The notes: a model not told the origin generated them from the letters alone. Shown: positions 11,302 to 25,947, counted from the first letter of the stretch. The stretch is 64,000 bases of DNA from Hydrocarboniphaga sp. (GCF_028291725.1 NZ_JAQGNT010000064.1:1-64000), one strand, 5' to 3'. Made by a program: numbers and translations.

Positions 11302-12575
11302 CGAACACCCAAAGCTAGCATCAGCGACTCAATTTCGGCCAACCCTCGCTCGACCGTGCTTGCAAGCAGGGGCTTGTCGGCGACGAGACCCGAACTGAGG
11401 GTGGAGCCGAGCCACCGCGCCGTCCCCGCTTCCTTACGCTCGGCGATAGCGATCAACGCCGAACGAACATCGTCGAATCCTGCGTGCTCCTCGTTATCAA
11501 TGGCTAAATTGCCGTACACGTAGTTCGTGTCGTCTCGTCCGTTCCATGAATGGAAAGCTGCGCGTCTAACCAAGCACGGAACACATCGACCGCAGTGTTT
11601 ATAGCCGAAGTGCTTAAAGCGGCCGCAGCTCGTTGTGCTCCATGCGTACGAAGCTAGCAGCGCTTGATCCAAGCATTCATGCAGCATCTCCCCCTTGGTC
11701 TTGAATCTGTAGGGATTGACGATTCGAACTCGTAATCCGGCTGCATCGAGCACCTTCTGGAGCAATGAAAGGACTACAGGATGCGTCGTTCGAGTGCTGA
11801 GACTGCCGAGCCTGCCGCCTGTCAGCGGGGGATTAAGCGCGATGAACCCGTTTTCACAGATGTACAACGTCACCTCTTCTCCGGCGTGATACCGAGCAAG
11901 CGTGGTGGCTATGAACACACCGTATGCGATGAAAATTATCGACCTTGCTCGCTGCGAGGGAGGGTTCTCAGGGTCCGGGACAACGGCATTGTGGTTCGCC
12001 TGAAAATGCCGCAAGCCACCACCAATCTTAGCTGCGAATGTGATCTGCTTGTCCCCATCTCCGCGCACCATCTGGCTTACAGCAAGCGGCTTTTTGCCCT
12101 GAGCTGCCAGATCGACTGTACCGATGTAACTATCCAGTCCGCCTGACAACAGGACGATGCAGTCTTCTGTCGGGTGTTCTGGCTTGCGAGTAGGTTGAGG
12201 AAGAATGCCGCCCTCAATAAATCGCAGCGTCCAACGGTCGGTGCTGAGGTACGCAAGGAACTGCTGTAGCACGGCAGCGTTTGCGTTCCAGAATGGAGCA
12301 TCGACTACAGAAACCGTGAGGTCGAATTCTCGTGTCCACCCGTCAGGGCTTCGTTCGCGGTGTCCTGCAAAATCTGAAGATACTACTGCCAATGCCAGGG
12401 ACAAAAGGTCCCATGCTCGTGCCGCAGGAGAAACCTTTTCCTGCATTATGGCGTGCTTTAACGCCACACCAACTGATCCGCGCGTAGGAATGCCAGAATT
12501 TCCGAAGAGAACAATGTCCAAATCACTTGGTGTTCCCGAAAAATCGAAATCGGAAAGCGCGCAGGTGATCTTCAT
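11298..12575 (-). CDS. qatC: QatC: QueC-like PP-loop protein of the Qat anti-phage system
   Basis: A 425-residue protein whose central part resembles 7-cyano-7-deazaguanine synthase QueC. The PP-loop motif LLSGGLDS (about residues 143-150) and a C-terminal zinc-type cysteine set (CGRFKH...HCGRCVPC) are intact. The N-terminal 130 residues are an extension not found in housekeeping QueC. In Qat systems this protein is thought to make or attach a deazapurine-like group; the target is not known from this sequence. ATGA overlaps join it to qatB and qatD. Confidence 0.92.
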   Translation of the reverse strand: MKITCALSDFDFSGTPSDLDIVLFGNSGIPTRGSVGVALKHAIMQEKVSPAARAWDLLSLALAVVSSDFAGHRERSPDGWTREFDLTVSVVDAPFWNANAAVLQQFLAYLSTDRWTLRFIEGGILPQPTRKPEHPTEDCIVLLSGGLDSYIGTVDLAAQGKKPLAVSQMVRGDGDKQITFAAKIGGGLRHFQANHNAVVPDPENPPSQRARSIIFIAYGVFIATTLARYHAGEEVTLYICENGFIALNPPLTGGRLGSLSTRTTHPVVLSLLQKVLDAAGLRVRIVNPYRFKTKGEMLHECLDQALLASYAWSTTSCGRFKHFGYKHCGRCVPCLVRRAAFHSWNGRDDTNYVYGNLAIDNEEHAGFDDVRSALIAIAERKEAGTARWLGSTLSSGLVADKPLLASTVERGLAEIESLMLALGVR

Positions 12576-13441
12576 TCGGCATACCCCTCGAACACCTGAT
12601 AGGTCTCGCGGATTGCGCTCTGCACGATCTGCGTAATTCGCCGGGTCGCCAATGACTGCCCAGCTTCGCGCAATCGACGGAACGAAGCAGAAATCGCTTC
12701 CCGAACATACTCTCGGACTTCCTTGAGCCGTCCCATGCCGATAACCGCGTTCGGAGCTTTCTCGCGAATTGTCTTCCCGATATCCAAATCGATTCGGCGA
12801 AACACATCGCCCGCGACAAACCGCTCGATCGCCAAATCACGCTGCTCTTGTTGGAGATTCAGAAGGTCCGCATCTGGGTATTGATTCAGAACGTCGGCCA
12901 ACGCGTCTTTTATGGAAGTCCGGCTGGCTTCAGCATCTTGCGTTCCGTCCACGGGACGCACTGCTTCCACCACAGCATCCATGATCTCGTTTGCGGATCG
13001 TCCGGCCGTCAATACTGGGTCTAGCGGACCGCCAGCTTCCGAGTAAGAGCTAGCCTCTCCTCCAGAGAGCGCTGAGTACAACGCTTGCGCGGTCTGAACG
13101 GTGCCGCCCATTCTTCGGGTTGCGGTCCCGCTCCCTCCGTATCCCTTTTTGACGTATTGTCCGAGACCGCGCTGCATATTCGCGCGATCACCGCTTCGCG
13201 CGTACTCGCCCAAGTTCCTATTCGCCCCTGAAAATCGACGCGCCGGTGCGACTGGAATGGGCTGACGGGGCTCCGTGTTCGGCGCGGATGTCGTGTCCTG
13301 ATCAGGCGCAGCCTCTGGAGGAGCGCCTTCGCCGGCATCCGGCTCGGCGGGAGGCGAAGCAGGAAGAGGCAGGTCCGGCACCCACGGTGGCACCATGGGA
13401 ACGCCAGATGGCGAGCCGTTACTTGACTGTGAGGTTCCCAT
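12572..13441 (-). CDS. qatB: QatB: Qat anti-phage system protein of unknown fold
   Basis: About 289 residues. The start MGTSQSSNGSPSG at 13441 gives the Gly/Ser/Pro-rich N terminus typical of QatB proteins; the open frame continues to 13540 but overlaps qatA more deeply without family support. A disordered acidic/proline-rich stretch (about 20-90) is followed by a helical domain with ANMQRGLGQYVKKGYGG. The function is unknown beyond being required for defence. It overlaps qatA by 23 bases and qatC by 4. Confidence 0.87.
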   Translation of the reverse strand: MGTSQSSNGSPSGVPMVPPWVPDLPLPASPPAEPDAGEGAPPEAAPDQDTTSAPNTEPRQPIPVAPARRFSGANRNLGEYARSGDRANMQRGLGQYVKKGYGGSGTATRRMGGTVQTAQALYSALSGGEASSYSEAGGPLDPVLTAGRSANEIMDAVVEAVRPVDGTQDAEASRTSIKDALADVLNQYPDADLLNLQQEQRDLAIERFVAGDVFRRIDLDIGKTIREKAPNAVIGMGRLKEVREYVREAISASFRRLREAGQSLATRRITQIVQSAIRETYQVFEGYAE

Positions 13442-15317
13442 GTCCCTTCCTCGCCTTGATCGCGCTCTTGACCGGCTTACTAATTTGATCGTCATCGTCC
13501 CAGACGGCAAAAACTCCCTTCGCCCATGGCTCATCCGCAATCTTCGGGACGATGCTGGCCTTGATCTGCAAAGCAGGACGTTCTTGTAGGAAACCTGCCA
13601 GGCGTTGACCCTGCGGCGGGTCCGCAGCTACAACGACCATGCACGCTTCCAGAATGGCTGGGGTTCCCCATTCCTGCTCTTGCCGTGCCCGTCCGAGCAA
13701 TCTATCCATGATCACCGACATTTCAGGTCGTGCCAGCGCAACAAGCCGATCCTTGATGCTCGCGGCCATGTCGGGATGCTCCAAAAGCCCTTCCAGCAAA
13801 TCCGCAGCCTCGGCTGAAAGACGATCCTCCGGCGTAATCAAAGGGGCGTGCTCTCGACTCACGTAAAGCGCGCCGCGTAAGTCACTGCCACCCAGTAGCG
13901 GCGGCAGACGGAGCCATTCGGCGATGAAAGGATCATCCCAAGGCGCCTTGAGGTCCAACTTCTCACCAGAGACTGCTTTCTGCTCCCACTGGGAAAGGAG
14001 GTTTGGCTTGCCATCGTCCGCCTCCGTAACCGATTTAATGAGCTCTGCGTAGGCCTTTGGATTCCCGCACCGCTCAAACAGCAGCACCTTGGCGAGTTCA
14101 GACTCATCGACGCCGACACCTTGCGCGCGCGACATCGCCATTCGGATCGAGAGCGCATTCAGGAATCGCTTAATCAGTCTTGGATTGCCGGCGATACCGG
14201 TTGCAGTCGTCATCAGCGGAGCTAGGCGATCGGCAACGTCGAGACGCGCGACCAGTTCGGCCGGCAAGGTGTCGTGCAAACTTCGCAAGAACTTGAGGTC
14301 TACGCGCTTGCCTTGCCAGGTCTTTCCGAGCTGTAAGCAAACACCAGCTCGGAGCACTTCTTTCGTTTCGGGTTTGAGGCCGCTGTTCTCAATAAACAGC
14401 AACATCATGTACGCGCGAACCTCTTGCGTTCCCAACGGTGGGACGCGAATGGGAAACTGGATGAGCTTGTCGAAATAGTTGGTGACAAGGTCGTCTTCGA
14501 CACCTTGAAAGTGCCGCTTGACCGCGTGCTTGATCATCTGATCATCGGCGGCGATCACGAAGGCGGTGTGCTTGAGAAACAGAAGCAGTCTGATCGCCTC
14601 CAACGTCGAAATGGTCGTTTCCGGCAAGCATCGATCGAGGTCGTCAATCAACACGATCAAAGTCACGCCCATTTCATCGAGAGCGCCTTCGAAGCTTTCG
14701 CGCAAGGCTTCAATCTCTTTTGGCGGAGAAAATGCCTGTTTATCTTTAATCAGCCCTTGGGCAGATTCACCAACCTTGCCTGCTGCTGCATCTACAGTCG
14801 TGATTGCCTCCTGATCGATGCCCCCGTTGAATACTTTTCTGCCAACGCCCAACAGCTCACCCAGTAACCCTGCTGGAGGCAACCCCAGTGCGAGCGATGC
14901 TGCGGACCCAGCCGTCAACTTAATCGCCCGAAACCAGTTGACTCGTCTCAACAAGTCCTTTGTCCTTTCAACTCCGGTCTTGCGTTTCTCCGCCTCAGTC
15001 GCGAGGGCGGATGTGACGACATCAATCAACGCAGCGCGCGCGTCGTCATAACCTTGATAGAGCCATGCATTGAACTCGACAAAAATGAATTTTTTCTCTG
15101 TGGACTCAGTATCGGAGCTTGTATGCTCCTTGGCTTTGGCTCGATCTTTTAGCTCACTTCGGATCAGTTTGATCATCGAGGACTTACCTACGCCCCAAGC
15201 CCCCGAGACGCCGATTGAGATCGGGCGGGATTGAGCCTGCTCGATGACTTCGGCGACCGTCCGAGCGACGCTACTGAAGTTCAAGAAGTCTTGCGCTGTC
15301 TCGTTATCGGTCCACAT
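13419..15317 (-). CDS. qatA: QatA: KAP-family P-loop ATPase of the Qat anti-phage system
   Basis: A 632-residue KAP NTPase. Walker A (GAWGVGKSS, about residues 40-48) and Walker B (LIVLIDDLDRCLPE) are intact, and hydrophobic stretches between them (SAASLALGLPPAGLLGELLG) may touch the membrane, as in many KAP proteins. It is the first gene of qatABCD. A nuclease-like gene ends 24 bases upstream on the same strand. The operon is visibly less GC-rich than the ICE backbone to the right, consistent with separate acquisition. Confidence 0.93.
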   Translation of the reverse strand: MWTDNETAQDFLNFSSVARTVAEVIEQAQSRPISIGVSGAWGVGKSSMIKLIRSELKDRAKAKEHTSSDTESTEKKFIFVEFNAWLYQGYDDARAALIDVVTSALATEAEKRKTGVERTKDLLRRVNWFRAIKLTAGSAASLALGLPPAGLLGELLGVGRKVFNGGIDQEAITTVDAAAGKVGESAQGLIKDKQAFSPPKEIEALRESFEGALDEMGVTLIVLIDDLDRCLPETTISTLEAIRLLLFLKHTAFVIAADDQMIKHAVKRHFQGVEDDLVTNYFDKLIQFPIRVPPLGTQEVRAYMMLLFIENSGLKPETKEVLRAGVCLQLGKTWQGKRVDLKFLRSLHDTLPAELVARLDVADRLAPLMTTATGIAGNPRLIKRFLNALSIRMAMSRAQGVGVDESELAKVLLFERCGNPKAYAELIKSVTEADDGKPNLLSQWEQKAVSGEKLDLKAPWDDPFIAEWLRLPPLLGGSDLRGALYVSREHAPLITPEDRLSAEAADLLEGLLEHPDMAASIKDRLVALARPEMSVIMDRLLGRARQEQEWGTPAILEACMVVVAADPPQGQRLAGFLQERPALQIKASIVPKIADEPWAKGVFAVWDDDDQISKPVKSAIKARKGHGNLTVK

Positions 15318-15341: not shown

Positions 15342-16274
15342 TCAGGCCTTTTTTTCTGCACCCGATATCGGATGCACGTAGATGAGCCCCTTCGTTTGTG
15401 CCGCTTTTACTTTTCGGTCCATCATGTCGCGAAAGCTCAGATGCCCTTCCAGGATCAGGATCAGATCTTCGCCATCAACGAAGAGCGTCTGAATCTCCTT
15501 GCCTATGACGAGGCTGCGGACGACTTCCGAGCTGAATCCGTTGACTGAGATGAACAGGCCGCGCCCGTAAAGCTTTCCACCGACCTTGCTGGCAAACTGA
15601 TAGACCGGCTCGTTACTCGCTGATTTCTCCTGCCATTTGGCTTCTATGAGGTAATGTTCTCCGTCGAACTTAACGGCGCCGTCGATCTGCTCGCCATTGA
15701 CGCGAAACGCTTCCGTCGTTTCCAGACGCGAGAGCCGCGCAAGTTCGGCCAGAATGCGCTCCAGCGCGTAGCCTCTTTGTTGCCTCGATATCTTGTGGGC
15801 TAGCAGATCGAGGTACTCGACGTGTAGTTCGTCCAGCGTCGTCGTCGGCTGCTGACGCGCCGCCTCATGATTTGCTCGACGCTCTCGGTCCACTTTGATC
15901 TTGGCATCGCGGATTTCCTGCAGTTGCTTCAGATGATCGAGATTTCTGGTCGCCGCGGCGCGGTCCAATTTACGTAGCGCGTCGAAGTAATAGGGATCAA
16001 AGTGTGCCCACGCCAGCAGCGACTGCAGCATGGCCCTGAATGGTCCTAGCCCATTGTCTGGGCGAACGTCCAGCTTTCCAAACAGCACATCAATAATCTC
16101 GTGCCGCTTGAGCCCATTCTCCCCTTCGATCTGCAGGCTGCTTAGTTCTGCTTTTGTGCATCCGTGCTTCTCAAAAAAGCCGACTATGTCCTTGCGCGGC
16201 CAGAACAAGGACAAGATGCAATCCTTCATGCAGCCCTTGATGTCCGCCGGAAAACTCGTTGCATACTCCTTCAT
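15342..16274 (-). CDS. Mrr-like restriction endonuclease-fold protein
   Basis: A 310-residue protein. The C-terminal half has the PD-(D/E)xK layout of Mrr-type nucleases: a conserved Glu in the helix YALERILAEL, Asp in QIDGAVKFDG and EAK in YLIEAKWQ, followed by a glycine-rich strand/helix. The N-terminal part (about 1-150) is an uncharacterised helical domain. It ends 24 bases before qatA on the same strand, so it may be transcribed with the Qat operon as an accessory nuclease. No methyltransferase is nearby, so it is either a modification-dependent enzyme or a DNA-triggered effector. Confidence 0.75.
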   Translation of the reverse strand: MKEYATSFPADIKGCMKDCILSLFWPRKDIVGFFEKHGCTKAELSSLQIEGENGLKRHEIIDVLFGKLDVRPDNGLGPFRAMLQSLLAWAHFDPYYFDALRKLDRAAATRNLDHLKQLQEIRDAKIKVDRERRANHEAARQQPTTTLDELHVEYLDLLAHKISRQQRGYALERILAELARLSRLETTEAFRVNGEQIDGAVKFDGEHYLIEAKWQEKSASNEPVYQFASKVGGKLYGRGLFISVNGFSSEVVRSLVIGKEIQTLFVDGEDLILILEGHLSFRDMMDRKVKAAQTKGLIYVHPISGAEKKA

Positions 16275-16299: not shown

Positions 16300-16875
16300 T
16301 TATAGAACCAGACGATAGGTAGCTAGCAATTTACTAGTCTGCACGAGACCTTGTCGCAGCAAGATGTCGAGGTAGCGGTCTACATCGATCGGTGGATTCT
16401 TGAGCTGCCGCCGCTGGCGCTGCGCGGCTGCCACGACGGCCGCTTGATCGAGATCAAATAGATACTCGGTAAAGACGTCGGGATGCTGACAATCGATGCC
16501 GAAGGTCGCGAGCACCTCGGCAGGAAAATCCTTTTCGTTGAATGTCACGATCACGCTGGCGTTGCAGCGGATCGCGGCGGCCAGCACGTGGCGATCATCC
16601 GGGTCTGGCAGGATCAGCCCGGCAATCAGATGCTCATGCCCGGTCACCAGAGCATCTGGAATCGCCAGATCCATGAGCGATGACGTGCGATCAAGCTGCT
16701 CCGCCGTCAGGTCGAGCCGGTTCGCGAGGAGGTTGCGTTTCCACTCATCATGGATCTGCTGGCTCCATCGCGCCCGGAACCGACCCGTTAAGCCCAACCA
16801 CATCAGGAAATCGCGAAGGGGCGCGGGATACAGGACGCAGGCGTCATAGACGGCTGTGAATGGCGAATGCCTCAT
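16300..16875 (-). CDS. PIN-domain ribonuclease toxin
   Basis: A 191-residue PIN protein. The acidic active-site positions appear in VYDACVLYP (first Asp), DPDDRHVLAA and TFNEKDFP. The first 130 residues are the PIN fold and the rest is helical. It overlaps the upstream HTH gene by four bases (ATGA), the antitoxin-first arrangement of many PIN/HTH toxin-antitoxin pairs. Target RNA is unknown. Confidence 0.83.
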   Translation of the reverse strand: MRHSPFTAVYDACVLYPAPLRDFLMWLGLTGRFRARWSQQIHDEWKRNLLANRLDLTAEQLDRTSSLMDLAIPDALVTGHEHLIAGLILPDPDDRHVLAAAIRCNASVIVTFNEKDFPAEVLATFGIDCQHPDVFTEYLFDLDQAAVVAAAQRQRRQLKNPPIDVDRYLDILLRQGLVQTSKLLATYRLVL

Positions 16876-17339
16876 TCGTATCCCATGCCCAGCTCCTGAG
16901 CCTGTTTGGTCAGCCCCTCCATCGCCTGCTCGCTAGCGCGGTCGCGCTCCGATTTGAAACTCATCAAATCAGCGAAGCGCACGCGCCGGTGCTTGCCAGT
17001 CTTGTGGAACGGCAATGAGTTTGCCTCTAGCAGCTTTACCAAGTGCGGCCGCGAAACATTGAGCAGGTCGGCTGCTTCTTGGGTGGTCAGCTCCGCATGG
17101 ATCGGTACGACTTGAACGGCATTGCCGTCCGCTAGCTCGGCAAGGATGTCCACCAACAGACGCAGCGCACTAGTCGGTAACTCGACCTGATGCGCCTGAT
17201 TTTTGTCGTCCAAGATTTGGATGCGCTGGGTTTCAAACTGGGTGGTCAGATACGCGGCCAAGGCTCGCTGGCTCTCGACCGCCGCCTGCACCTCGCGTGC
17301 AACGGGGAGATTCATAACGGTTAGGGAGGCATTGCTCAT
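16872..17339 (-). CDS. Excisionase-like HTH antitoxin paired with the PIN toxin
   Basis: About 155 residues from the ATG at 17339 (MSNASLTVMNLPVA); the open frame extends to 17420 but that part is AT-rich upstream sequence containing repeats. A MerR/excisionase-type HTH is seen at TTQEAADLLNVSRPHLVKLLE, followed by the wing RRVRFADLMSF. It should neutralise the PIN protein and repress the pair, probably through the TAAACGAAA repeats just upstream. Confidence 0.82.
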   Translation of the reverse strand: MSNASLTVMNLPVAREVQAAVESQRALAAYLTTQFETQRIQILDDKNQAHQVELPTSALRLLVDILAELADGNAVQVVPIHAELTTQEAADLLNVSRPHLVKLLEANSLPFHKTGKHRRVRFADLMSFKSERDRASEQAMEGLTKQAQELGMGYE

Positions 17340-17380
17340 GACGAACTCCGAGGGCTTTAGACGACTCAGGAGAAGCACTT

Positions 17381-17414
17381 TAAACGAAATAAACGAAAAT
17401 CGCAATAAACGAAA
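17381..17414. promoter_or_regulatory. Three TAAACGAAA direct repeats, likely operator of the PIN/HTH pair
   Basis: TAAACGAAA occurs at 17381-17389, 17390-17398 and 17406-17414, immediately upstream of the antitoxin start at 17339. The first two copies are adjacent and the third follows after 7 bases. Short direct repeats at this position fit an autoregulatory operator for the HTH antitoxin. Confidence 0.55.
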
Positions 17415-17546
17415 CGCCAATTCCCGTGGGACTTTCCGCCCTCGCCTCCGACATTGAACTGATTGGCAAATTCGGAAGAGTTACAGGACACTCCAGTGTA
17501 TTGATTCGCAGCCGTTTTTTCATAGCGTTCGGCCGAGGTAGTCCGG

Positions 17547-18392
17547 ATGAAGGGAGAGGGGCAGGATTTTCATTCGCTAGTTGGCGACTTTGCGGGCGCC
17601 GATGACCTGCTGTGGGCCGCTCAAACCGGGGAACTGCAAGCCGTCGGAAAAGTCGTGCTTTCGCGGTCGGGCCGCATCGGTCCGCTCGTAGAACTGGAAA
17701 TGGCTCGACGAGCGTATTCGTCGATCTACTCGGATGTCGTTGTCGCACCGCCTTTCGCGAAGCTCATTCGTGCCGCGATGACCGCTGCCGCCATCAGCGG
17801 CACCCATCGTGACGCACGAATAGGCGTGTTCCCTCTCGGAGTTCTTGGACGCGACGGCGATACAACAGATCAATGGACGCTCTGGGCAAGTCGAGCAGAT
17901 CAAGCGGCAATTTATGCTGGATTTCCCCCGAAAGTGGCAGCCGAAATCGTCGGCGCTTTGGGGGAATTGCAAGACAATATCTTCCGCCATAGCTCCGCAT
18001 ATGAGAGCGGCCTTGTCGCCTTTGCTGCCTCTCGGAACACATTCGAAGTCGTCGCTAGTGATGCCGGAATCGGGGTGCGCGCGAGCCTTCATCAATGTCC
18101 CGAATACGCTAACGTTGAAGACGCGGGTGCCGCGTTGAAAGTGGCCGTCATGGACGGCGAGTCCAGGTTCGGTCGCAATAGCGGCTGTGGCTTCGGTATG
18201 GGACAAATGTTTCGAGCACTCGCCAATCATGACGGGGAGCTACGATTCCGAAGCGGCGATCACGCCCTTCAAATCTATGGGCACAGCCCCAGCTTGCAGG
18301 GACGCCTCGAATTGCTTCACAAAGCTTCTCTGCCAGGGTTGACGATCAGCGTCTTGTGTCGGGCGCCGGGGAGCACGGAAAGCACGCTCTAA
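17547..18392 (+). CDS. GHKL (histidine-kinase-like) ATPase domain protein
   Basis: A 281-residue soluble protein with a C-terminal GHKL ATP-binding fold. The N box is GELQDNIFRHS (139-149), the G1 box SDAGIGV (171-177) and the G2 box SGCGFGMGQMF (212-222). There is no His-phosphoacceptor domain, so it resembles anti-sigma-type or stand-alone ATPases rather than a sensor kinase. The first 110 residues match nothing I recognise. Its 3' end overlaps by 153 bases the convergent gene that ends a STAS-like operon. GHKL ATPases often partner STAS proteins, so the two transcription units may form one module. Function unknown. Confidence 0.75.
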   Translation: MKGEGQDFHSLVGDFAGADDLLWAAQTGELQAVGKVVLSRSGRIGPLVELEMARRAYSSIYSDVVVAPPFAKLIRAAMTAAAISGTHRDARIGVFPLGVLGRDGDTTDQWTLWASRADQAAIYAGFPPKVAAEIVGALGELQDNIFRHSSAYESGLVAFAASRNTFEVVASDAGIGVRASLHQCPEYANVEDAGAALKVAVMDGESRFGRNSGCGFGMGQMFRALANHDGELRFRSGDHALQIYGHSPSLQGRLELLHKASLPGLTISVLCRAPGSTESTL

Positions 18393-19517
18393 AACCACAG
18401 GGGCCGCGGAGGTGATTTGACTCAGCACCTCGCGCCGCGTCGCAATGTTGTGCATCAGAAGATCATCGATGGGCGCGTCCCGTGGTGTCTGCGTTTGCAC
18501 CCAACGCAGGCGTCCGGTTGCCGTTACCGTCGCGCGGCGACGTTTGAGCGTCCGAGCAAACGAGTCCGTGTCGATCAGGATCACGCGCGCGAAATGCTTT
18601 CGCAATTGATGTAGGACGTGGACTCCGCCGCGTACCACCAGCGTCAGATTACGCTCGACATTATCTGCAAGCTGGCAAAGCTGCTCGACATGCCAATTGA
18701 TCCGGCCTGGGTAGCCAGCACCTGTCCCGAATTCGAAGGCAATGCTTTCGACCTCGGCTCGGTCCGCCACAAAGCGCGCCCAGCGGGCATAGTCGTGCTC
18801 GGTGCGCGCATTGACATGCAGCGCGGCAGGAATTCCGGCCGACATCAATTGAGCCCAACTCAGGGCAATGCGCTTCATGCCGTGCAGATTGTCCGGCCTC
18901 GGCACGTTCGTAAACAGGCTGAAGTTGGGCGTCGTAACGAGCGCAACACCGAGATGGCGCAGCGTCTTGAGAATATTCTGCCGATTCGCCAACGCCCACC
19001 AGGCTTCGATCTTGACGTCCCGATCGACGCCCGACACCACGAGTACGGCATCGCGCCGAATGAGAAAGCGATCGGCCAGCTCTTCGCGATTTCGTACCAG
19101 CGGCTCGCCCGTGCCCCGGTGAAACAGGTCGAATAGGGATACGGCGACTACTGGCTCCAGAAGTGTCGCCTTGCGGCTGTGCTTGTGGTCGATGAGCGGC
19201 ACGAAAACCGGTAACGCAGCTGCAGCTACGGACGAGACGCGGGGAACCGTGTCCAGTTCGAAGCCCCCCACTTCCATGAAGCGCTCGAAGAAGGTAACCG
19301 GCTTGTTGCGACAGACCATGTCGCAGAGGTCTGGATTGGCGCAGGAACACAGGTCATTGCAGTCATAGACGTCGGCATCGATATTCAGGCCGCCGCAGAC
19401 CTTGAAGTCAGGGCACGAAGGACAGCCCAGGCACTTCGAATTGCGCGTCGCGTCGTTAAGCAATTTGTGTGACGGGGAAAACTCCCGTGTCGGTTCGTGA
19501 GCGGGACGTGCGTTCAT
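18240..19517 (-). CDS. Cys-rich protein, possibly DUF4417-like
   Basis: A 425-residue protein starting at an ATG that overlaps the upstream gene by four bases (ATGA). The N terminus has a dense cysteine cluster (CLGCPSCPDFKVCGG, about residues 30-44, then CNDLCSC, CDMVC), which suggests a zinc or Fe-S site. The middle part (TPNFSLFTNVPRPDN, LMSAGIPAALHVNARTEHD, AFEFGTGAGYPG) resembles the DUF4417 layout, but this is pattern memory only. It ends inside the 3' end of the GHKL gene on the opposite strand. Enzymatic role unknown. Last gene of a three-gene operon. Confidence 0.62.
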   Translation of the reverse strand: MNARPAHEPTREFSPSHKLLNDATRNSKCLGCPSCPDFKVCGGLNIDADVYDCNDLCSCANPDLCDMVCRNKPVTFFERFMEVGGFELDTVPRVSSVAAAALPVFVPLIDHKHSRKATLLEPVVAVSLFDLFHRGTGEPLVRNREELADRFLIRRDAVLVVSGVDRDVKIEAWWALANRQNILKTLRHLGVALVTTPNFSLFTNVPRPDNLHGMKRIALSWAQLMSAGIPAALHVNARTEHDYARWARFVADRAEVESIAFEFGTGAGYPGRINWHVEQLCQLADNVERNLTLVVRGGVHVLHQLRKHFARVILIDTDSFARTLKRRRATVTATGRLRWVQTQTPRDAPIDDLLMHNIATRREVLSQITSAAPVVLERAFRAPRRPTQDADRQPWQRSFVKQFEASLQAGAVPIDLKGVIAASES

Positions 19518-19867
19518 TTGAGCCTGAGTTCCACCGTCTGGCCCAAGCCACCGACCCGCTCCACGACAGCCTGGATCATCCCGTGGTGCTGCGTGACATT
19601 CGCAGTCACCCCTGCAGGCGGAGCCGCGATACGGGCGACCGCCTTCAGTCCGTCGTAAATAAGGAGATCGCCGGCACCCGTCGCCTGAACCAGAACGGTG
19701 ACGCCGGTTTTGGGTGCGCCGCCTGGTGTGAGCACCGCCGTGATTGTGCGACTCTCGCCGGCCAGTTCCATCCCGATTAGCTGAGGGCTCTTGGTCCGGT
19801 CGAGGCCGTCCGCCCACCGCTTCGCGTACGGCTTACCGCCTCTGCTCCGAATGAATTCGATACCCAC
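19514..19867 (-). CDS. Small conserved-looking protein of the STAS/GHKL module
   Basis: A 117-residue protein with GTG start at 19867 that shares one base with the stop of the STAS-like gene (TAGTG), and an ATGA overlap with the next gene. It is basic at the N terminus (IEFIRSRGGKPYAKRWADG) and then appears as alternating beta strands, with no cysteines or membrane segments. I recognise no family. The tight coupling on both sides says it works with its neighbours, perhaps as a small adaptor. Confidence 0.6.
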   Translation of the reverse strand: MGIEFIRSRGGKPYAKRWADGLDRTKSPQLIGMELAGESRTITAVLTPGGAPKTGVTVLVQATGAGDLLIYDGLKAVARIAAPPAGVTANVTQHHGMIQAVVERVGGLGQTVELRLK

Positions 19868-20442
19868 TACGTCGCCTCCAGGACAGGAGAAAAGGTCTTC
19901 GTCTTGCCGCCGCGTCGCTCCATCAATAAGCCCCGAGCGGCAAGGAACGCCAGCCGGTTATTCCATGCCGTCGGGCTTACCGCGGCGCCTTCAGTGCTTT
20001 GAGCGGCCAAGGTTGGGGCGCTGGCCGAACCCAGCTTGATCACCATCTCAAAGGTCATCCGGTGCGCTTCATCCAACTCGCCGAGCAATCGGGGTTCGTT
20101 GAGGGCGCCGTGCTTGTCGAGTCGGCAACTCCAAATCGCATCCTTGCGGTGGCGCAGGAAGAAATCGAGTTCTTCTGTGACGCTCGCCGATGCATTTGCG
20201 ACAACCGGAAAGAGCGCTGGCAACGTAGATCGTGTGTAGTCGCGGAATGCGACGACGCTCTCGCGCAGGAACGAGGCGGTCGCGACAGTCACGCCTGCGA
20301 AATCAAGAAAGACAGGCGCCGGCTCGCCGCCCTGCGGCGCAGCAGCAGCGATCAGCTTCGAAAACAGATTCCTGCCCGATTGCGCGCCAGAGAGAATTGC
20401 CAAGTTTTCCGTCAGCGCATGGATCTGCAACCGCATCTTCAT
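19867..20442 (-). CDS. STAS-like (DUF4325-type) protein with C-terminal winged-helix-like segment
   Basis: About 191 residues from the ATG at 20442; a TTG start at 20490 would add 16 residues. The segment PVFLDFAGVTVATASFLRES fits the beta-strand/loop/helix of STAS-like DUF4325 proteins. The C-terminal part (AWNNRLAFLAARGLLMERRGGKTKTFSPV) looks like a winged helix. STAS proteins usually bind GHKL ATPases, one of which is encoded convergently 2 kb away. It leads the three-gene operon; no function is known. Confidence 0.6.
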   Translation of the reverse strand: MKMRLQIHALTENLAILSGAQSGRNLFSKLIAAAAPQGGEPAPVFLDFAGVTVATASFLRESVVAFRDYTRSTLPALFPVVANASASVTEELDFFLRHRKDAIWSCRLDKHGALNEPRLLGELDEAHRMTFEMVIKLGSASAPTLAAQSTEGAAVSPTAWNNRLAFLAARGLLMERRGGKTKTFSPVLEAT

Positions 20443-20574
20443 ATCCTCATTGAGTTCAGTGAGGATATTCCCGGCCGTACCCGACGTCAACCCCCGGCTA
20501 TCTAGCCCCGGCAGTACAAGCGGACAAAGACGGATCGTTTGCCCTTCCGCTGCTCAGGACGTTGGGTGAATTTC

Positions 20575-21882
20575 CTAGGATTGCGCTAGGCGTTGAACGA
20601 CCAGAGACACTAAAGCCTCCGCCTCCGCAGGAAGGATCGAGTGAGGTGAATGAGCGCTGGGAATGATGACCTTCGCCAATTCCTCCGGGCTGACGAAACC
20701 GTAGCTATCGGTCGGTGTACAGCCAAGCAGTTCAGACACTTCCAGCTTGAGGCTCATCAGTGTCGAGCCGCAGTGATTGCAGATCGTGCTCGCATTGACC
20801 CATTTTCCAAATCCCCTGTTGGTTTGGAGATAGAAGCTGATTTTGTTCTTCTCTCCCACATAGGTGGTTTCTTGCTTCGAGCGTCTGCAAATTGGACAGC
20901 GCCAATTCTCTGAGACTGAGTTCCATGTTCGGGCACGGGCTTCTTCTGAGCGCAGCATTGCAAGAAAATTGTCCGGCAATGCTTTGCCTGGCTTCGGCAC
21001 TGTGGTGCGCCAACGCGACAGGTTGCGCGCCGAGGCCGCTTTCCCAGGACCCAGCGCTCTATATAACGCTTCGCCCGATACCCACTGCTGGATCGTGCGA
21101 TCGCTGCTGCGGTAGATCACTGAATCGCCGTATCCAAAGACCGGAATGGCGCTTGTGCGACGAGGGTATGGTTCGTACCAGTGGGCGTCCGTGGCTGCGG
21201 CATGGCCAACAGCCCGGATCAGCTTCATCCTTAGTTCGTATGCCGGCTTCGCCTCCTGCCAGATTTGTTGAGCCATCGTCGCATCGACCTGGTGCGGCTG
21301 GTGATCACCGCACCGGATGAATCGCTTGATCTGACCGGGAGAAAACGAGAAGAACAACGGTGACTCGACGAGCTTTTTAGCTTCGGTGTCGGCGTTGTTG
21401 CAGTCCTCGCAGATCAGCACTTCCTCGTAAGCCGCGAACGCGCTGCCCATGCGTTCAACGAGCCGTAAGCCCTCAACCTGTTCCACGCTTGTTCCAGCTT
21501 TCTCGAAGGCGGCATGAAATACCGCTTCCAGCGCTCCTCCCATGTGGTCGTGGTGAACGACTAATTTGGCCAGAATTTGGCGCTTCTTCCCGACGCGGGC
21601 AATCTGGAACTTCGATCTGGAGCAGCATGGGCACATCCAGTCTTGCGACGAGCCGATCCAGTTGGAGTTCATCTCGAAGTTGGCGAGTTGATGATGCGCC
21701 TTGATCTTCTTCGACAGTGGGGTATCGATGCCGTCCAGGCTGATGATCTCCCCGGCATTGATGGATTCCACCAGGACGCTGAGGGCCTCCCGTCTCAGCG
21801 CTTGCTCTTCGTCATATTTGAGCGGGGCATGCTCGGTACACCAACGGAAGAATCGGCTTTGAAGAAACAGATCATCGGTCAT
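20575..21882 (-). CDS. HNH-type zinc-ribbon protein, putative nuclease
   Basis: A 435-residue protein with an HNH-like core: a zinc ribbon (WMCPCCSRSKFQ), VVHHDHMGG supplying histidines, then ICEDCNNADTEAK closing the second zinc pair. A second, possibly regulatory zinc ribbon follows near residues 330-370 (CPICRRSKQ, CNHCGSTLMS). A GTG at 21888 is an alternative start. It sits among defence genes on the same strand as a second HNH gene. It may be a DNA endonuclease; the catalytic assignment is inference. Confidence 0.65.
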   Translation of the reverse strand: MTDDLFLQSRFFRWCTEHAPLKYDEEQALRREALSVLVESINAGEIISLDGIDTPLSKKIKAHHQLANFEMNSNWIGSSQDWMCPCCSRSKFQIARVGKKRQILAKLVVHHDHMGGALEAVFHAAFEKAGTSVEQVEGLRLVERMGSAFAAYEEVLICEDCNNADTEAKKLVESPLFFSFSPGQIKRFIRCGDHQPHQVDATMAQQIWQEAKPAYELRMKLIRAVGHAAATDAHWYEPYPRRTSAIPVFGYGDSVIYRSSDRTIQQWVSGEALYRALGPGKAASARNLSRWRTTVPKPGKALPDNFLAMLRSEEARARTWNSVSENWRCPICRRSKQETTYVGEKNKISFYLQTNRGFGKWVNASTICNHCGSTLMSLKLEVSELLGCTPTDSYGFVSPEELAKVIIPSAHSPHSILPAEAEALVSLVVQRLAQS

Positions 21883-21959
21883 ATGCACTCCACGGGCCTG
21901 CAGCGAGCATCGCGATTGATCTGCTACTTCCCTCGGATGGTGGGGAACCCACTACGAGT

Positions 21960-22745
21960 TCAGTCTTCCTGCTCATCGCCTGCCAAGAACTCTTCGTAGC
22001 TGCGGAAGGATCGATGCGCCTTTCCTTGGTTGATCCTCGCTTGACGGGTTCTTGCGATGCGGTTCTGAAGATAGTCGAACACGGCGCCCGCTCTTTCGAT
22101 CGGGAGCAGCTTCCACTGCGAGCCGAAGGTGGTTTCGATGTTTTTCGAGATCGCGCCGTAGCTGAAGCTCGTCTTACGCGTCGGATCATCGGCGCCAAAC
22201 TTGTTGTAGCGATTGATCAGATATTGAACGTACCGACTCGCCTGCAGATCGGCACCGATCGATCCCGGTGGCGAATTCAGGACTACCTTCTTCTTGCTGG
22301 TCTTGACGTTGACGGTATGTCCCTGGATGGCGCCGGGGCTGTTGATGGCGACATTTCCGGAATTGTTCTTGACGACGATCTTCCGGTAATCGTTGATGAG
22401 CAGCGACGCGAAGAAGCCATCCTGCTCACGTTCCGGGCGACCCAGCACATTTTCATGGATGGATTTGATTTGCCGGAGCGCCTCCACGGTGTAGACATCC
22501 GGCTGAGCATCAACCACCTTATGGTGCCGGCGACACAGCAGAATCAGATTGTCGAAACCATGCCGCTCCGCTTCGGTTTGTGCCGGATCGAACCGAGGTC
22601 CGCCGGGGCTGCGGGCTTTGATATGGCACATCTCACCAGTCACGACGCCGCTGTCTTCAAAGATCGGCAGTTGGCAGGACGGGAATGCGCAGCGATTGCC
22701 TGAGAGGGCAAACAACCTTTTGACTGTTTTATCGTTAGGTTCCAT
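21960..22745 (-). CDS. HNH endonuclease with uncharacterised C-terminal domain
   Basis: About 261 residues from ATG 22745 (MEPNDKTVKRLF). The N terminus is a clear HNH module: RCAFPSC, GEMCHIKARSPGGPRFD, NLILLCRRHHKVVD, in which the cysteines bind zinc and His/Asn form the catalytic site. After a beta-rich linker (GNVAINSPGAIQGHTVNVKTS) comes a helical domain of about 110 residues, perhaps a sensor. Such HNH-plus-sensor proteins are common effectors in defence islands. The upstream frame to 22805 lacks family support. Confidence 0.75.
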   Translation of the reverse strand: MEPNDKTVKRLFALSGNRCAFPSCQLPIFEDSGVVTGEMCHIKARSPGGPRFDPAQTEAERHGFDNLILLCRRHHKVVDAQPDVYTVEALRQIKSIHENVLGRPEREQDGFFASLLINDYRKIVVKNNSGNVAINSPGAIQGHTVNVKTSKKKVVLNSPPGSIGADLQASRYVQYLINRYNKFGADDPTRKTSFSYGAISKNIETTFGSQWKLLPIERAGAVFDYLQNRIARTRQARINQGKAHRSFRSYEEFLAGDEQED

Positions 22746-23171
22746 CGTCACCCCTGAAGTGTCTCTCCGCACCGAGACTGATCCCGCATCAGTATCGGCG
22801 ATCAAAGCGGGCCGAGTAATTATCGATATTGGCTAGCGTCAAATATCGCAGCAGTGAACAAGGGCGTCCCGGCGTTCCGCCGCTGGGCTCGCGGGCTGCG
22901 CCCCGCGACTCGCTGAGTCGCGGCCATCCGGCTTTGATCCCTGACGCCTTCGGCAGCCTCGCTGCCTGCGCGCTCCGCTTGCCGTGGGTTGCAGGGTGGG
23001 CGGCTTTGCCTGTCCGTTTCACCGTATCACGTCGTTCTCGCCGTCAAGACGCTGCGTTGCTCGCTGCGCTCCTCTACTCGCCGGGTGGCCGCTGGCCAGT
23101 CTGTGACGGCTGCGCTGCGGCGTGAGGGCTCCGGCCTTGGGCAATCCGCCTGAGACCACCGGAGTACGACC
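22746..23171. other. Intergenic region, no gene seen
   Basis: The left part is AT-rich and probably holds the promoter of the minus-strand HNH gene. The right part is very GC-rich, with short inverted repeats (for example GCGACTCGCTGAGTCGC near 22908), before the radC-like gene. No frame in it looks coding. It marks the switch from the defence island to the ICE backbone. Confidence 0.5.
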
Positions 23172-23681
23172 ATGTCGAACCATCCTTCTCTCGACGCTTC
23201 CGCTGAACTGTTCGTTCGCGATGCCGGCGGGGAATACCGCACCGCCACGGGTGATGAGGTGCTGCACCGCGCCCGCAGGGTGCTCAGCCATCGTGTAAGG
23301 CGTGGAACCGCATTCAGTTCGCCCCAGGTCTCCCGGGATTACCTGAGCTTGCGATTGGGCTCTCTTGAGCATGAGGTTTTCGTTGTCGTGATGCTAGACA
23401 CGCAGCATCGGCTGATCGAGGTGCTGGAGATGTTTCGCGGCACCATCGACGGGGCGGCGGTGTATCCACGCGAGGTGGTGAAGGAAGCGCTGGCGCGCAA
23501 TGCGGCGGCGGTGATCTTCGCGCACTGTCATCCGTCGGGGGTCGCCGAGCCGAGCGCGGCGGATCGGCTGCTGACGGATCGCTTGAAGGCAGCGTTGGCG
23601 CTGGTTGAAGTACGGGTGCTAGACCATCTGGTCGTGGGCGGCGACACCATCGTGTCATTTTCCGAACGTGGACTACTTTGA
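23172..23681 (+). CDS. radC: RadC-family JAB/MPN domain protein
   Basis: A 169-residue RadC-like protein of the type carried by mobile elements. The JAB1/MPN metal motif is present as a Glu in [10 protein letters not shown] and HCHPSG followed by the Asp of AADRLLTDR (about residues 116-130), with HLVVGGD near the end. It lacks the N-terminal HhH part of chromosomal RadC. Proteins of this group sit at one edge of many ICEs and may protect entering DNA, but their activity is not established. It is followed by a strong terminator. Confidence 0.87.
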
Positions 23682-23698
23682 TATGTGAAATAGCGACG

Positions 23699-23727
23699 AG
23701 GGGGGCCAAAAGGCCCCCTTTCTTTTT
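23699..23727 (+). terminator. Rho-independent terminator after radC
   Basis: A stem of seven pairs (GGGGGCC, AAAA loop, GGCCCCC) is followed by TTTCTTTTT. It lies 19 bases after the radC stop. Confidence 0.85.
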
Positions 23728-24066
23728 GCTTCGCGTACCGGCGCTCAATCGATCGTTTTCTTCTCCGGCGGCCGGGTGCCCCGGCCGCCTGCGCGCCGCT
23801 GAGCGGCTTGCGTGGCCTCTGCGGGCGCTCCTTCCGTCAAGGGTCGCACGAGCCCCCGTGTCCTCGCCTGCGGCTGCGGGCCGCGCCAGGGCTCGTGCTT
23901 GTTCCCTTGACGGCGCGCCCGCGCCGGCCGGCGGTTGGCCATGGCCGCGAAGGTCTTCGCGGCCATGGCGAAGGCCCGACTGCCCAAGGAGGACGCCATG
24001 CCCTGATCCGTTTCGCTTCTCGATTTCGAGTTCGCTTTTCCTTTTGCTTCCATATGGAGATTCACC
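23728..24066. other. Leader region upstream of parB, no gene seen
   Basis: This 339-bp stretch is GC-rich and contains a clear ribosome site (ggag) before the parB ATG. Overlapping frames on both strands are Arg/Ala-rich and look like composition artefacts. It probably carries the parB promoter. Confidence 0.45.
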
Positions 24067-25947
24067 ATGAACATGCACACCACGATCACCGCTTCCCAAG
24101 AACTGCTGTTGATTCCGATGTCGCAGTTGCGGCCTTCGGCCCGCAATGTACGCAAGACCGGCGGCACGTCGATTCCCGAACTGGCATCGAGCATCGCCCG
24201 CGTCGGCCTGCTGCAAAACCTCACCGTCATCGCCTGCGACGATGGCGAGCATTACGAAGTCGTGGCTGGCGCTCGACGGCTGGCGGCATTGAAGCTGCTG
24301 GCGAAGAAGAAGCGGCTGCCGAGCGCGCACGAAGTGCCTTGCCTCGTCGTACCGGATGCGGCGGCTCGCACGGCCAGCCTTACCGAGAACGTACAACGCG
24401 AGGCGATGCATCCGGCCGATCAATTTGAGGCATTCCAGGCGCTGATCGAGGAAGGCCGGCCCATTGAGGACATCGCCGCCGACTTCGGCGTGACACCGCC
24501 GGTGGTGCAGCGGCGCCTGAAACTCGCCAACGTCTCGCCTCGCTTGCTGGCGGACTACCGGGCCGATGCGGTCACGCTCGATCAACTGATGGCGCTGGCC
24601 ATCACCGACGATCACGCGGCGCAGGAGACGGCGTTCTACGAGTCACCGGAGTGGCAGCGCAGTCCGCATGCGCTGCGCGAGCATCTGACCGAACGCGACA
24701 TTGACGGCCTGCGCGATCCGCTGGCGCGTTTCGTCGGCGTGGCAGCGTATGAAGCCGCAGGCGGCACGGTGCGCCGCGACCTGTTTTCGGAAGATGCGGA
24801 GCAGGCGTATCTGACGGATGCCGAACTGCTCGACCGGCTGGCGCGGGAGAAGCTCGCGGCATCGGCCGACGACGTGCGCGCCGAAGGCTGGGCCTGGGTG
24901 GACGTGGTGCCGCGTATCATGCCGGCCGATCTGTCCGTGCTGCACCGGGTACGCCCGGATCGGCGCAAGCCAAATGCGAAGGAAGCCAAGCGCATCGCCA
25001 AGCTGGAAGCACGGCAGCAGGCCATCGAAGACAAGCTGGAAGGCGGCGATGCGGCCGAGATTGCCGAGGGAAAAGCGCAGACGCTGTGCGACGAGAGCGA
25101 CAAGCTCGACGCTGAGTTGGAAGCCATTGAGCAGTCGCTGATGGTCTTCTCACCCGACGTGCTGTCGGTGGCGGGCGCCGTCGTCACCGTCGATCATGCC
25201 GGCGAAATCGCCGTGCATCGCGGGCTGCTGCGGGAGGCCGATACCGAGGCATTACGGCAAGTGCAGGAGCAAGGCCGGCACACGGATGGCGCGGTCGTGC
25301 CGAAGACGCAGACTATGGCGGACCGAACGGTGTCGGCCAAGCTGGCGCGGCAGTTGAGTGCGCATCGCACGGCGGCGTTGCAGGCGGAGCTGGCGCGCCA
25401 GCCGGGCGTGGCGCTGGTCGCCGTCGTTCATCGTCTGGTACTGCACACCTTCTACGACGATCGCCACACGGACACGGCGCTGCAAGTGTCCTGCACGCCG
25501 CAAGATGCGCTCGACCGCTGCGCGCCCGATCTGCCTGAATCGCGGGCCGTCACGGCATTGGCAGATGCCCGGCAGGTTTGGATGGACGAGCTGCCTGTGA
25601 AAACGGAAGGACTGTTCGCCGCGCTGCAAGCGCTTTCGCAGGACGACCTGCTTTCTCTGCTGGCGGTCTGCGTTGCCGGCTGCATCGATGCAGTCAGCCC
25701 GCATGAGACGGACGGCAAGGCCAACGAACTGGCATCGGCGCTGGGCCTCGATATGGCGAAGTGGTGGACGGCGACGGCGGCCGGCTACTTCGCTCAGGTG
25801 TCCAAGGCCCGCGTGCTCGAAGCGGTGCAGTGCATCGCGCCGGATCAGGTGCGCGCACTCGGCTTGAGCAAGAAGCCGGAACTCGTCGCCGCCGCCGAGC
25901 GGCTGGCGGCGGGCACCGGCTGGTTGCCGGCGATGTTGCGGTCGTAG
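24067..25947 (+). CDS. parB: ParB/RepB/Spo0J-family partition protein
   Basis: A 626-residue ParB of the long plasmid/ICE type. The N-terminal ParB nuclease-like domain has the box VVAGARRLAALKLL (about 61-74) and TENVQREAMHPADQFEAF (about 108-125), followed by the HTH (IEDIAADFGVTPPVVQRRL). The rest is a helical/coiled domain with AKEAKRIAKLEARQQAIEDKL. It should bind centromere-like sites and act with the ParA encoded near 31.8 kb, although the two genes are separated by 6 kb, as is usual in Tn4371-like ICEs. Good ribosome site (ggagattcacc). Confidence 0.92.
   Translation: MNMHTTITASQELLLIPMSQLRPSARNVRKTGGTSIPELASSIARVGLLQNLTVIACDDGEHYEVVAGARRLAALKLLAKKKRLPSAHEVPCLVVPDAAARTASLTENVQREAMHPADQFEAFQALIEEGRPIEDIAADFGVTPPVVQRRLKLANVSPRLLADYRADAVTLDQLMALAITDDHAAQETAFYESPEWQRSPHALREHLTERDIDGLRDPLARFVGVAAYEAAGGTVRRDLFSEDAEQAYLTDAELLDRLAREKLAASADDVRAEGWAWVDVVPRIMPADLSVLHRVRPDRRKPNAKEAKRIAKLEARQQAIEDKLEGGDAAEIAEGKAQTLCDESDKLDAELEAIEQSLMVFSPDVLSVAGAVVTVDHAGEIAVHRGLLREADTEALRQVQEQGRHTDGAVVPKTQTMADRTVSAKLARQLSAHRTAALQAELARQPGVALVAVVHRLVLHTFYDDRHTDTALQVSCTPQDALDRCAPDLPESRAVTALADARQVWMDELPVKTEGLFAALQALSQDDLLSLLAVCVAGCIDAVSPHETDGKANELASALGLDMAKWWTATAAGYFAQVSKARVLEAVQCIAPDQVRALGLSKKPELVAAAERLAAGTGWLPAMLRS

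What the first reader, a model, noticed from the sequence alone, without database searches (positions are those of the whole stretch)
17547..20442. GHKL ATPase facing a STAS-like/small protein/Cys-rich operon: candidate undescribed system
Inside a defence island, a stand-alone GHKL ATPase gene (N, G1 and G2 boxes visible) is convergent with a three-gene operon. That operon holds a STAS-like protein with a winged-helix-like end, a 117-residue protein I do not recognise, and a protein with a dense N-terminal cysteine cluster and DUF4417-like middle. Genes within the operon are linked by a TAGTG and an ATGA junction. STAS proteins and GHKL ATPases are classic binding partners, so a partner-switching switch controlling a metal-binding effector is plausible. 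I recognise no named system with this set.
Basis: partly seen in the sequence, partly recalled or inferred. Interest (0 to 1): 0.85.

Follow-up and report, generated by a model that had tools for sequence, protein, structure and literature searches.

The report
Kinase-switched four-gene defence-island cassette
Four neighbouring bacterial genes that always travel together encode a kinase, the DNA-binding repressor it probably switches off, a small DNA-end-reader-like protein and a cysteine-rich enzyme-like protein; they sit among anti-phage genes and look like an undescribed, self-regulated immune module.

Summary
The four genes are real and form one conserved unit. All 66 relatives from a genome scan show the same neighbours, except copies cut by a contig end or damaged (one by an insertion). 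A kinase-seeded search of 397 genomes gave 7 further copies, all complete. Orientation is not essential: three gene layouts exist.

The STAS-like protein is a STAS-winged-helix protein and the GHKL protein a kinase-type ATPase. Both are distant relatives of CapS and CapK (EMBO J 2026), where CapK phosphorylates the repressor CapS to de-repress an immune operon. A CTCAC/GTGAG-type operator overlaps the promoter of the STAS gene (strict form in 33 of 68 loci, two copies elsewhere), so the cassette probably represses itself.

The "DUF4417-like" protein has a predicted TIM barrel most like tRNA-guanine transglycosylases, plus an eight-cysteine N-terminus. The 117-residue protein has a HIRAN-like fold. 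Neither match is visible by sequence.

I found no named system with this set (PADLOC, NCBIfam, literature). Neighbours include Qat, Gabija, AbiE, Argonaute and Kiwa genes. Best reading: a new CapKS-like module carrying its own payload. Trigger, phospho-site, enzymatic activity and phage defence are untested.

The parts
17547..18392 (+). GHKL kinase-type ATPase, 281 aa (CapK-like)
   Evidence: HATPase_c_2 in 64/67 relatives; E140, N144, H148, D172, G174, G176, G215, G217 invariant 67/67; aligns to CapK, N144 with CapK N218
18240..19517 (-). Cys-rich TGT-fold protein, 425 aa (DUF4417-like; likely payload)
   Evidence: AlphaFold2 pLDDT 82.9, pTM 0.80; top 50 structural matches all tRNA-guanine transglycosylases, Z about 16; C32 C35 C41 C53 C57 C59 C65 C69 invariant or nearly so
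19514..19867 (-). 117-aa protein, residues 34-117 HIRAN-like fold
   Evidence: AlphaFold2 pLDDT 77.3; structural matches 3k2y Z 9.4, HLTF HIRAN Z 7.9, Rad5 7.3, HamB 7.1
19867..20442 (-). STAS-winged-helix protein (CapS-like repressor); likely start ATG at 20436
   Evidence: DUF4325 in 49/67 relatives; best solved-structure profile hit CapS 9z71, colinear; invariant T55, S57 and W160-N-N-R-L164
18240..18392 (.). 153-bp antisense overlap of the 3' ends of the kinase and DUF genes
   Evidence: ORF coordinates; overlap of 36-177 bp kept in convergent relatives, one excepted; kinase frame better conserved than DUF tail
20443..20466 (.). Operator: perfect inverted repeat ATCCTCA-N10-TGAGGAT
   Evidence: Sequence; family-wide CTCAC/GTGAG-type repeat upstream of STAS, strict YTCAC-N9/10-GTGAR in 33/68 loci against two copies elsewhere
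20462..20490 (-). Promoter of the STAS operon: -35 TTGACG (20485-20490), 17-nt spacer, -10 TATCCT (20462-20467)
   Evidence: Only promoter-like match in 17350-20700 (0.8 expected by chance); TTGAC conserved in relatives; overlapped by the operator

Best explanation
The four genes form one self-contained, stress-switched immune-type cassette. At rest, the STAS-winged-helix protein binds the CTCAC/GTGAG-type palindrome over its own promoter and keeps the operon low (operator shown by conservation; binding inferred). A stress signal, most likely DNA damage or ssDNA arising from phage replication or DNA cleavage, activates the GHKL kinase (inferred). The kinase phosphorylates the STAS protein on S57 or T55, the repressor leaves the DNA, and the HIRAN-like protein and the TGT-like barrel protein are made in quantity (inferred by analogy with CapK/CapS). 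The HIRAN-like protein then reads DNA ends, and the Cys-rich TGT-like protein acts on a nucleobase of DNA or tRNA, by exchange or removal, to stop the phage or arrest the cell (inferred from predicted folds only).
For: Unit: all complete relatives carry all four genes, confirmed by a kinase-seeded search; pairwise distances correlate at r 0.93-0.97. Switch: kinase boxes invariant, STAS profile finds CapS first among solved structures, CapK and CapS score 28 and 17 bits against the family profiles, a CapK+CapS-type pair is the neighbouring family; mechanism of CapK/CapS from PMC13373217. Self-repression: conserved operator over the promoter. Payload folds. Defence context: QatABCD next door; Gabija, AbiE and Argonaute genes among nearest neighbours, more than in a control set.
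Against: Homology to CapS is weak (E 0.078) and the CapS acceptor column is Ala in most members. TGT and HIRAN similarity is by predicted fold only; no sequence signal. TGT catalytic residues were not superposed. Nothing shows that the kinase senses DNA, that the payload is toxic, or that the cassette protects from phage.
Confidence: 0.5

Rival explanations
1. VapKSC-like logic: the STAS protein holds the payload inactive by direct binding, and phosphorylation by the kinase releases it. The cassette is a kinase-triggered toxin-antitoxin module, with transcriptional autoregulation as a secondary feature.
For: The payload genes are always in the same operon as STAS and the repressor controls no neighbouring operon, as in a toxin-antitoxin module; VapKSC is a proven precedent (PMC13373217).
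Against: VapS has no winged helix, whereas this protein has an invariant one and a conserved operator. No PIN or other known toxin domain is among the four.
Confidence: 0.22
2. The barrel protein is a sensor or modification enzyme rather than a killer: the Cys cluster is an Fe-S redox sensor, or the cassette adds or exchanges a base in host DNA or tRNA to mark self, and the phospho-switch tunes its expression.
For: Eight conserved Cys; DpdA, the DNA preQ0 insertase, is among the fold matches; Cys-rich DUF4417 relatives on Streptomyces plasmids lie beside ParB-like genes with no kinase or STAS gene.
Against: No queuosine or preQ0 pathway genes were seen beside the annotated relatives and no nuclease partner is part of the cassette. 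The defence-island setting and CapKS-like control fit an inducible effector better.
Confidence: 0.18
3. A stress-controlled maintenance module of mobile elements (plasmids, integrative elements) with no direct anti-phage role; it lies in defence islands because both ride on mobile DNA.
For: Several copies are on plasmids; the window has ParB-like and RadC-like genes nearby; distribution is patchy (9 of 397 genomes of one order with a strong match).
Against: Repeated direct adjacency to Gabija, AbiE and Argonaute genes is more specific than mobile-element co-location alone.
Confidence: 0.09
4. Chance neighbours or spurious ORFs.
For: Long antisense ORFs are common in this GC-rich DNA, and public annotations of two relatives list an antisense ORF over the kinase.
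Against: Recurrence in all complete loci across several phyla, correlated divergence and a conserved operator.
Confidence: 0.01

Closest known systems
CapK + CapS (Chambers et al., EMBO J 2026, PMC13373217)
   Same: GHKL kinase plus STAS-winged-helix protein; STAS protein with a palindrome at its own promoter; immune-gene setting; kinase Asn (CapK N218 / N144 here) conserved.
   Different: CapK is HTH-STAS-GHKL (368 aa) and is immediately followed by CapS, upstream of varied immune operons; here the kinase (281 aa) lies at the other end of, or opposite to, the operon, with a fixed payload of HIRAN-like and TGT-like genes and no operator at neighbours. The CapS acceptor column (S54) is mostly Ala here, with invariant T55 and S57.
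VapKSC (same paper)
   Same: Kinase, STAS protein and payload in one self-contained unit.
   Different: Payload is a VapC PIN nuclease; VapS has a short C-terminal tail instead of a winged helix; three genes, not four.
SpoIIAB/SpoIIAA and RsbW-type partner switches
   Same: GHKL kinase acting on a STAS protein is the parent logic.
   Different: No sigma factor in the cassette; the STAS protein carries its own DNA-binding domain.
tRNA-guanine transglycosylases and DpdA
   Same: Predicted barrel fold of P0002 (Z about 16 to TGT; DpdA in the Foldseek list).
   Different: No detectable sequence homology; N-terminal eight-Cys region that TGT lacks at that place; activity unknown.
DUF4417 proteins of phages and Streptomyces plasmids
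   Same: Barrel similarity to Streptomyces plasmid DUF4417 proteins (E about 1e-6 to 1e-8), which also have an N-terminal Cys cluster.
   Different: Partners are ParB-like proteins (ParB-CTPase fusions in phages, PMC12704722); no kinase, STAS or HIRAN-like gene beside them.

Membership tests
CapK + CapS | GHKL kinase domain with catalytic Asn | tested here: met
   N144 invariant 67/67 and aligned with CapK N218
CapK + CapS | STAS plus winged-helix partner protein | tested here: met
   DUF4325 hits in 49/67; CapS is the best solved-structure profile hit, full length but weak (E 0.078)
CapK + CapS | Conserved phospho-acceptor Ser at the CapS S54 column | tested here: not met
   Ala 45, Ser 10, Gly 10 of 67; flanking T55 and S57 invariant
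CapK + CapS | capK immediately followed by capS | tested here: not met
   Kinase is convergent at the far end, or last in the operon; kinase directly before STAS only in four planctomycete-type loci
CapK + CapS | CapK N-terminal HTH and STAS domains | tested here: inconclusive
   Profile alignment to CapK covers the GHKL domain only; the N-terminal 110 residues were not modelled
CapK + CapS | Activation by ssDNA and phosphorylation of the STAS protein | not testable with these tools
   Needs biochemistry
VapKSC | VapC PIN toxin in the operon | tested here: not met
   No PIN domain among the four; a PIN gene lies nearby at 16300-16875 with its own HTH partner and is not part of the conserved unit
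tRNA-guanine transglycosylase | TGT barrel fold | tested here: met
   Predicted model, Z 16.3 over 265 residues, rmsd 3.6
tRNA-guanine transglycosylase | Sequence profile of PF01702 | tested here: not met
   No PF01702 hit in 62 members; hhalign P 0.068 over 20 columns only
tRNA-guanine transglycosylase | Catalytic Asp pair (D102, D280 in Zymomonas TGT) | tested here: inconclusive
   D167 invariant, position 316 acidic in 66/68; equivalence inferred from strand order, not superposed
HIRAN domain | HIRAN fold | tested here: inconclusive
   Z 7.1-9.4 to HIRAN-type structures on a pLDDT 77 model; such Z values can be chance
HIRAN domain | Sequence profile PF08797 | tested here: not met
   No hit in 61 members; hhalign P 0.064 over 58 columns
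DUF4417 (PF14386) | Match above Pfam's gathering score | tested here: not met
   P0002 scores 11.5 against a cut-off of 28.9 bits; 2 of 62 members match at E <= 0.1; PGAP nevertheless names plasmid relatives DUF4417
Named defence systems in PADLOC-DB 2023 and NCBIfam | A convincing match of a system model to any of the four proteins | tested here: not met
   PADLOC: none for all four up to E 1. NCBIfam: none except one chance-level, non-defence hit of P0004 (E 0.041)

The most novel reading that the evidence does not exclude
A new class of immune system in which a phospho-switch releases a TGT-fold, probably iron-sulfur or zinc-containing base-exchange or base-removing enzyme, guided by a HIRAN-like DNA-end reader: a TGT-type barrel used as a defence effector.
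Probability: 0.3. Interest if true: 0.88.

Novelty: new variant of a known kind. Interest (0 to 1): 0.7.

Why it matters
It shows that kinase-repressor logic of the CapK/CapS kind, described in 2026 mainly as an add-on controller of other immune operons, also exists as a fixed four-gene cassette with its own payload in several phyla. It gives a concrete function hypothesis (TGT-like enzyme) for a DUF4417-type protein, a family that phages and plasmids also carry. It names an operator, likely phospho-site residues and likely active-site residues that can be tested at once.

Tried and rejected
Chance co-location: rejected by recurrence. Convergence as an essential feature: rejected, three layouts. 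L075 as a counter-example: it is truncated, with transposase- and resolvase-like ORFs in place of the missing part. Named PADLOC or NCBIfam system: none. Viral contigs: no close relative of the barrel protein in a single-protein scan. Sequence homology to TGT and HIRAN: not detectable. Control of neighbouring defence operons through the same operator: no copies found at neighbours' promoters. Pfam DUF4417 search in 299 genomes found nothing, controls included, so it is uninformative. Defence enrichment of neighbours rests on tallies for the 25 best families and one control set; the control comes from one genome only.

Full report
Observation. The four ORFs are present at the stated coordinates. 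The operon on the minus strand runs STAS (start 20442, more likely 20436) - small protein - DUF4417-like protein with TAGTG and ATGA junctions. The GHKL gene runs toward it on the plus strand, and the two 3' ends overlap by 153 bp (18240-18392).

Is it a unit? tblastn of the GHKL and DUF proteins against plasmids found both in Rhizobium, Sinorhizobium, Aminobacter and a Planctomyces; in each of the six records that I opened the small and STAS genes lie beside them. A genome scan seeded with the DUF protein gave 66 loci, mostly Alphaproteobacteria, with a Rhodoferax MAG and others titled Planctomycetota, Gemmata, Phycisphaerae, Bryobacterales, Sulfopaludibacter, Nitrospinae, Armatimonadetes and Polyangiaceae (many are MAGs, so some labels are less certain). 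HMM scans found all four genes contiguous in every complete locus. Four loci lack one or two genes: L048, L071 and L073 are cut by a contig end, and L075 is truncated, with transposase- and resolvase-like ORFs in place of the missing part. L072 has all four but looks degraded. An independent search seeded with the kinase over 397 genomes of the order of a Bradyrhizobium relative gave nine strong hits; two were genomes already in hand and all seven others, inspected in longer stretches, carry the full set. Pairwise identities of the four proteins correlate at r = 0.93-0.97 over 62 loci.

Layouts. Three occur: kinase convergent, with a 36-177 bp overlap in all but one of the loci; kinase last and codirectional; kinase first (planctomycete-type loci). 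In the convergent group the DUF protein has an extra C-terminal tail read antisense to the conserved kinase C-terminus. That tail is less conserved (65%) than the kinase frame (83-85%) and is predicted with low confidence, so it looks like an overprinted extension.

The switch. 64 of 67 kinase relatives match HATPase_c_2, the Pfam family I know for RsbW-type kinases, and the key residues of the N, G1 and G2 boxes are invariant. 49 of 67 STAS relatives match DUF4325. The best solved-structure hit of the STAS profile is CapS (9z71), weak (E 0.078) but colinear over nearly the whole protein. CapK and CapS, read from an Enterobacter plasmid, score 28 and 17 bits against the kinase and STAS profiles; N144 aligns with CapK N218, which is needed for CapS phosphorylation (PMC13373217). 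A kinase+STAS pair of the CapKS kind with a patatin-like gene downstream came up as the next family out in the kinase-seeded search (L160). In CapS the acceptor is S54; in this family that column is Ala in 45, Ser in 10 and Gly in 10 of 67, while the flanking T55 and S57 are invariant (numbering from the start at 20442). The acceptor, if there is one, has probably shifted to S57 or T55 (inference).

The operator. Upstream of the STAS gene lies ATCCTCA-N10-TGAGGAT at 20443-20466, over the -10 of the only promoter-like site in the region, TTGACG-17-TATCCT (one such site is about what chance gives, so the conservation matters more than the match). A CTCAC/GTGAG-type inverted repeat recurs across the family, some planctomycete-type loci included. 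YTCAC-N9/10-GTGAR occurs within 80 bp upstream of STAS in 33 of 68 loci and only twice elsewhere in all of these loci. Inverted-repeat scores are higher upstream of STAS (mean 7.9) than upstream of the kinase (4.8). The strict form is absent from promoters of the neighbouring defence genes, so the repressor appears to serve its own cassette. This is the clearest difference from CapS, which also controls a separate downstream immune operon.

The payload. AlphaFold2 on 62 relatives gives a confident barrel for the DUF protein (mean pLDDT 82.9, pTM 0.80). Foldseek's best hits are tRNA-guanine transglycosylases, with triosephosphate isomerases close behind; DpdA, the DNA preQ0 insertase, is in the list. 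The 50 best structural alignments are all TGTs (Z 15.9-16.3, about 262 residues, rmsd 3.5-4.0). Comparison with a profile of 30 TGT sequences shows no sequence relation, so this is fold similarity only. D167, N198, E262 and an acidic residue at 316 (66/68) are conserved at or near barrel strand ends; by strand order, position 316 would correspond to the TGT nucleophile (inference, not a superposition). The N-terminus has eight nearly invariant Cys, compatible with Fe-S or Zn. Streptomyces plasmid relatives beside ParB-like genes also have an N-terminal Cys cluster.

Residues 34-117 of the small protein are predicted as a HIRAN-like barrel (3k2y Z 9.4; HLTF HIRAN Z 7.9; Rad5 7.3; HamB of Hachiman 7.1), again without a significant sequence signal. 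HIRAN domains bind DNA ends (PMC8262856), and CapK is activated by ssDNA (PMC13373217); a DNA-damage trigger would join the two, but it is not shown here.

Context. The window holds a complete QatABCD system next door. Among the two nearest genes on each side in 64 relatives, PADLOC models at E<=1e-15 find GajA (6), GajB (5), AbiEi (6), AbiEii (8) and Argonaute-type proteins (up to 6 for one model in each set). A control of 98 genes from 12 other contigs of the window's genome matched 33 PADLOC families, against 218 in each neighbour set, and 24 of the 25 listed were matched by one member only. Annotated plasmid relatives add KwaB-like, NACHT and OLD/UvrD genes.

Judgement. Shown: a conserved four-gene unit, motif conservation, a conserved operator, a defence-island setting. 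Supported but weak by statistics: remote kinship of the switch with CapK/CapS. Predicted: TGT-like and HIRAN-like folds. Inferred: phosphorylation, DNA-damage trigger, enzymatic activity, anti-phage function. It probably works like CapKS, but I do not file it as CapKS, because the gene order and the acceptor column differ. No paper in the searchable library describes this set; preprints and most subscription papers are outside that library.

Noticed in passing
window 10558-15317 (-): Complete QatABCD anti-phage system: QatA, QatB, QatC and QatD each match their PADLOC models.
   Followed up: yes
window 16300-17420 (-): Excisionase-type HTH protein followed by a PIN-domain protein of the RSP_2648 family: a likely toxin-antitoxin pair between Qat and the cassette.
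   Followed up: partly
window 21960-22805 (-): HNH nuclease-type protein whose N-terminal part matches HNH effectors of CBASS/SAVED-type and PDC-M68 models.
   Followed up: partly
window 20575-21888 (-): 437-aa protein with several CxxC pairs and no clear family, next upstream of the STAS operon promoter.
   Followed up: no
window 15342-16274 (-): 310-aa protein with a Mrr_cat restriction-endonuclease-like domain, just upstream of QatA.
   Followed up: no
window 23172-25947 (+): RadC-like protein (by eye) and a 626-aa ParB-like protein (phrog_7783, E 2.9e-92): a mobile-element backbone next to the island.
   Followed up: no
L002 8120-8959 (-); L003 8120-9019 (-): In two public plasmid records the kinase gene is not annotated; an antisense 299-aa ORF is annotated over it instead.
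   Followed up: yes
L008 4304-6768; L009 4319-6741: Streptomyces linear plasmids carry a ParB-like gene directly followed by a Cys-rich DUF4417 protein related to the barrel protein, without kinase or STAS genes.
   Followed up: partly
L159 3570-4820 (-): A GHKL protein with a STAS-like segment (SSSFADE motif) at its C-terminal end in the same chain: kinase and possible substrate fused.
   Followed up: no
L160 3661-5280 (+): CapK+CapS-type pair with a patatin-like gene downstream; its STAS motif reads DYSF, so the published S54 position is not Ser there either.
   Followed up: no
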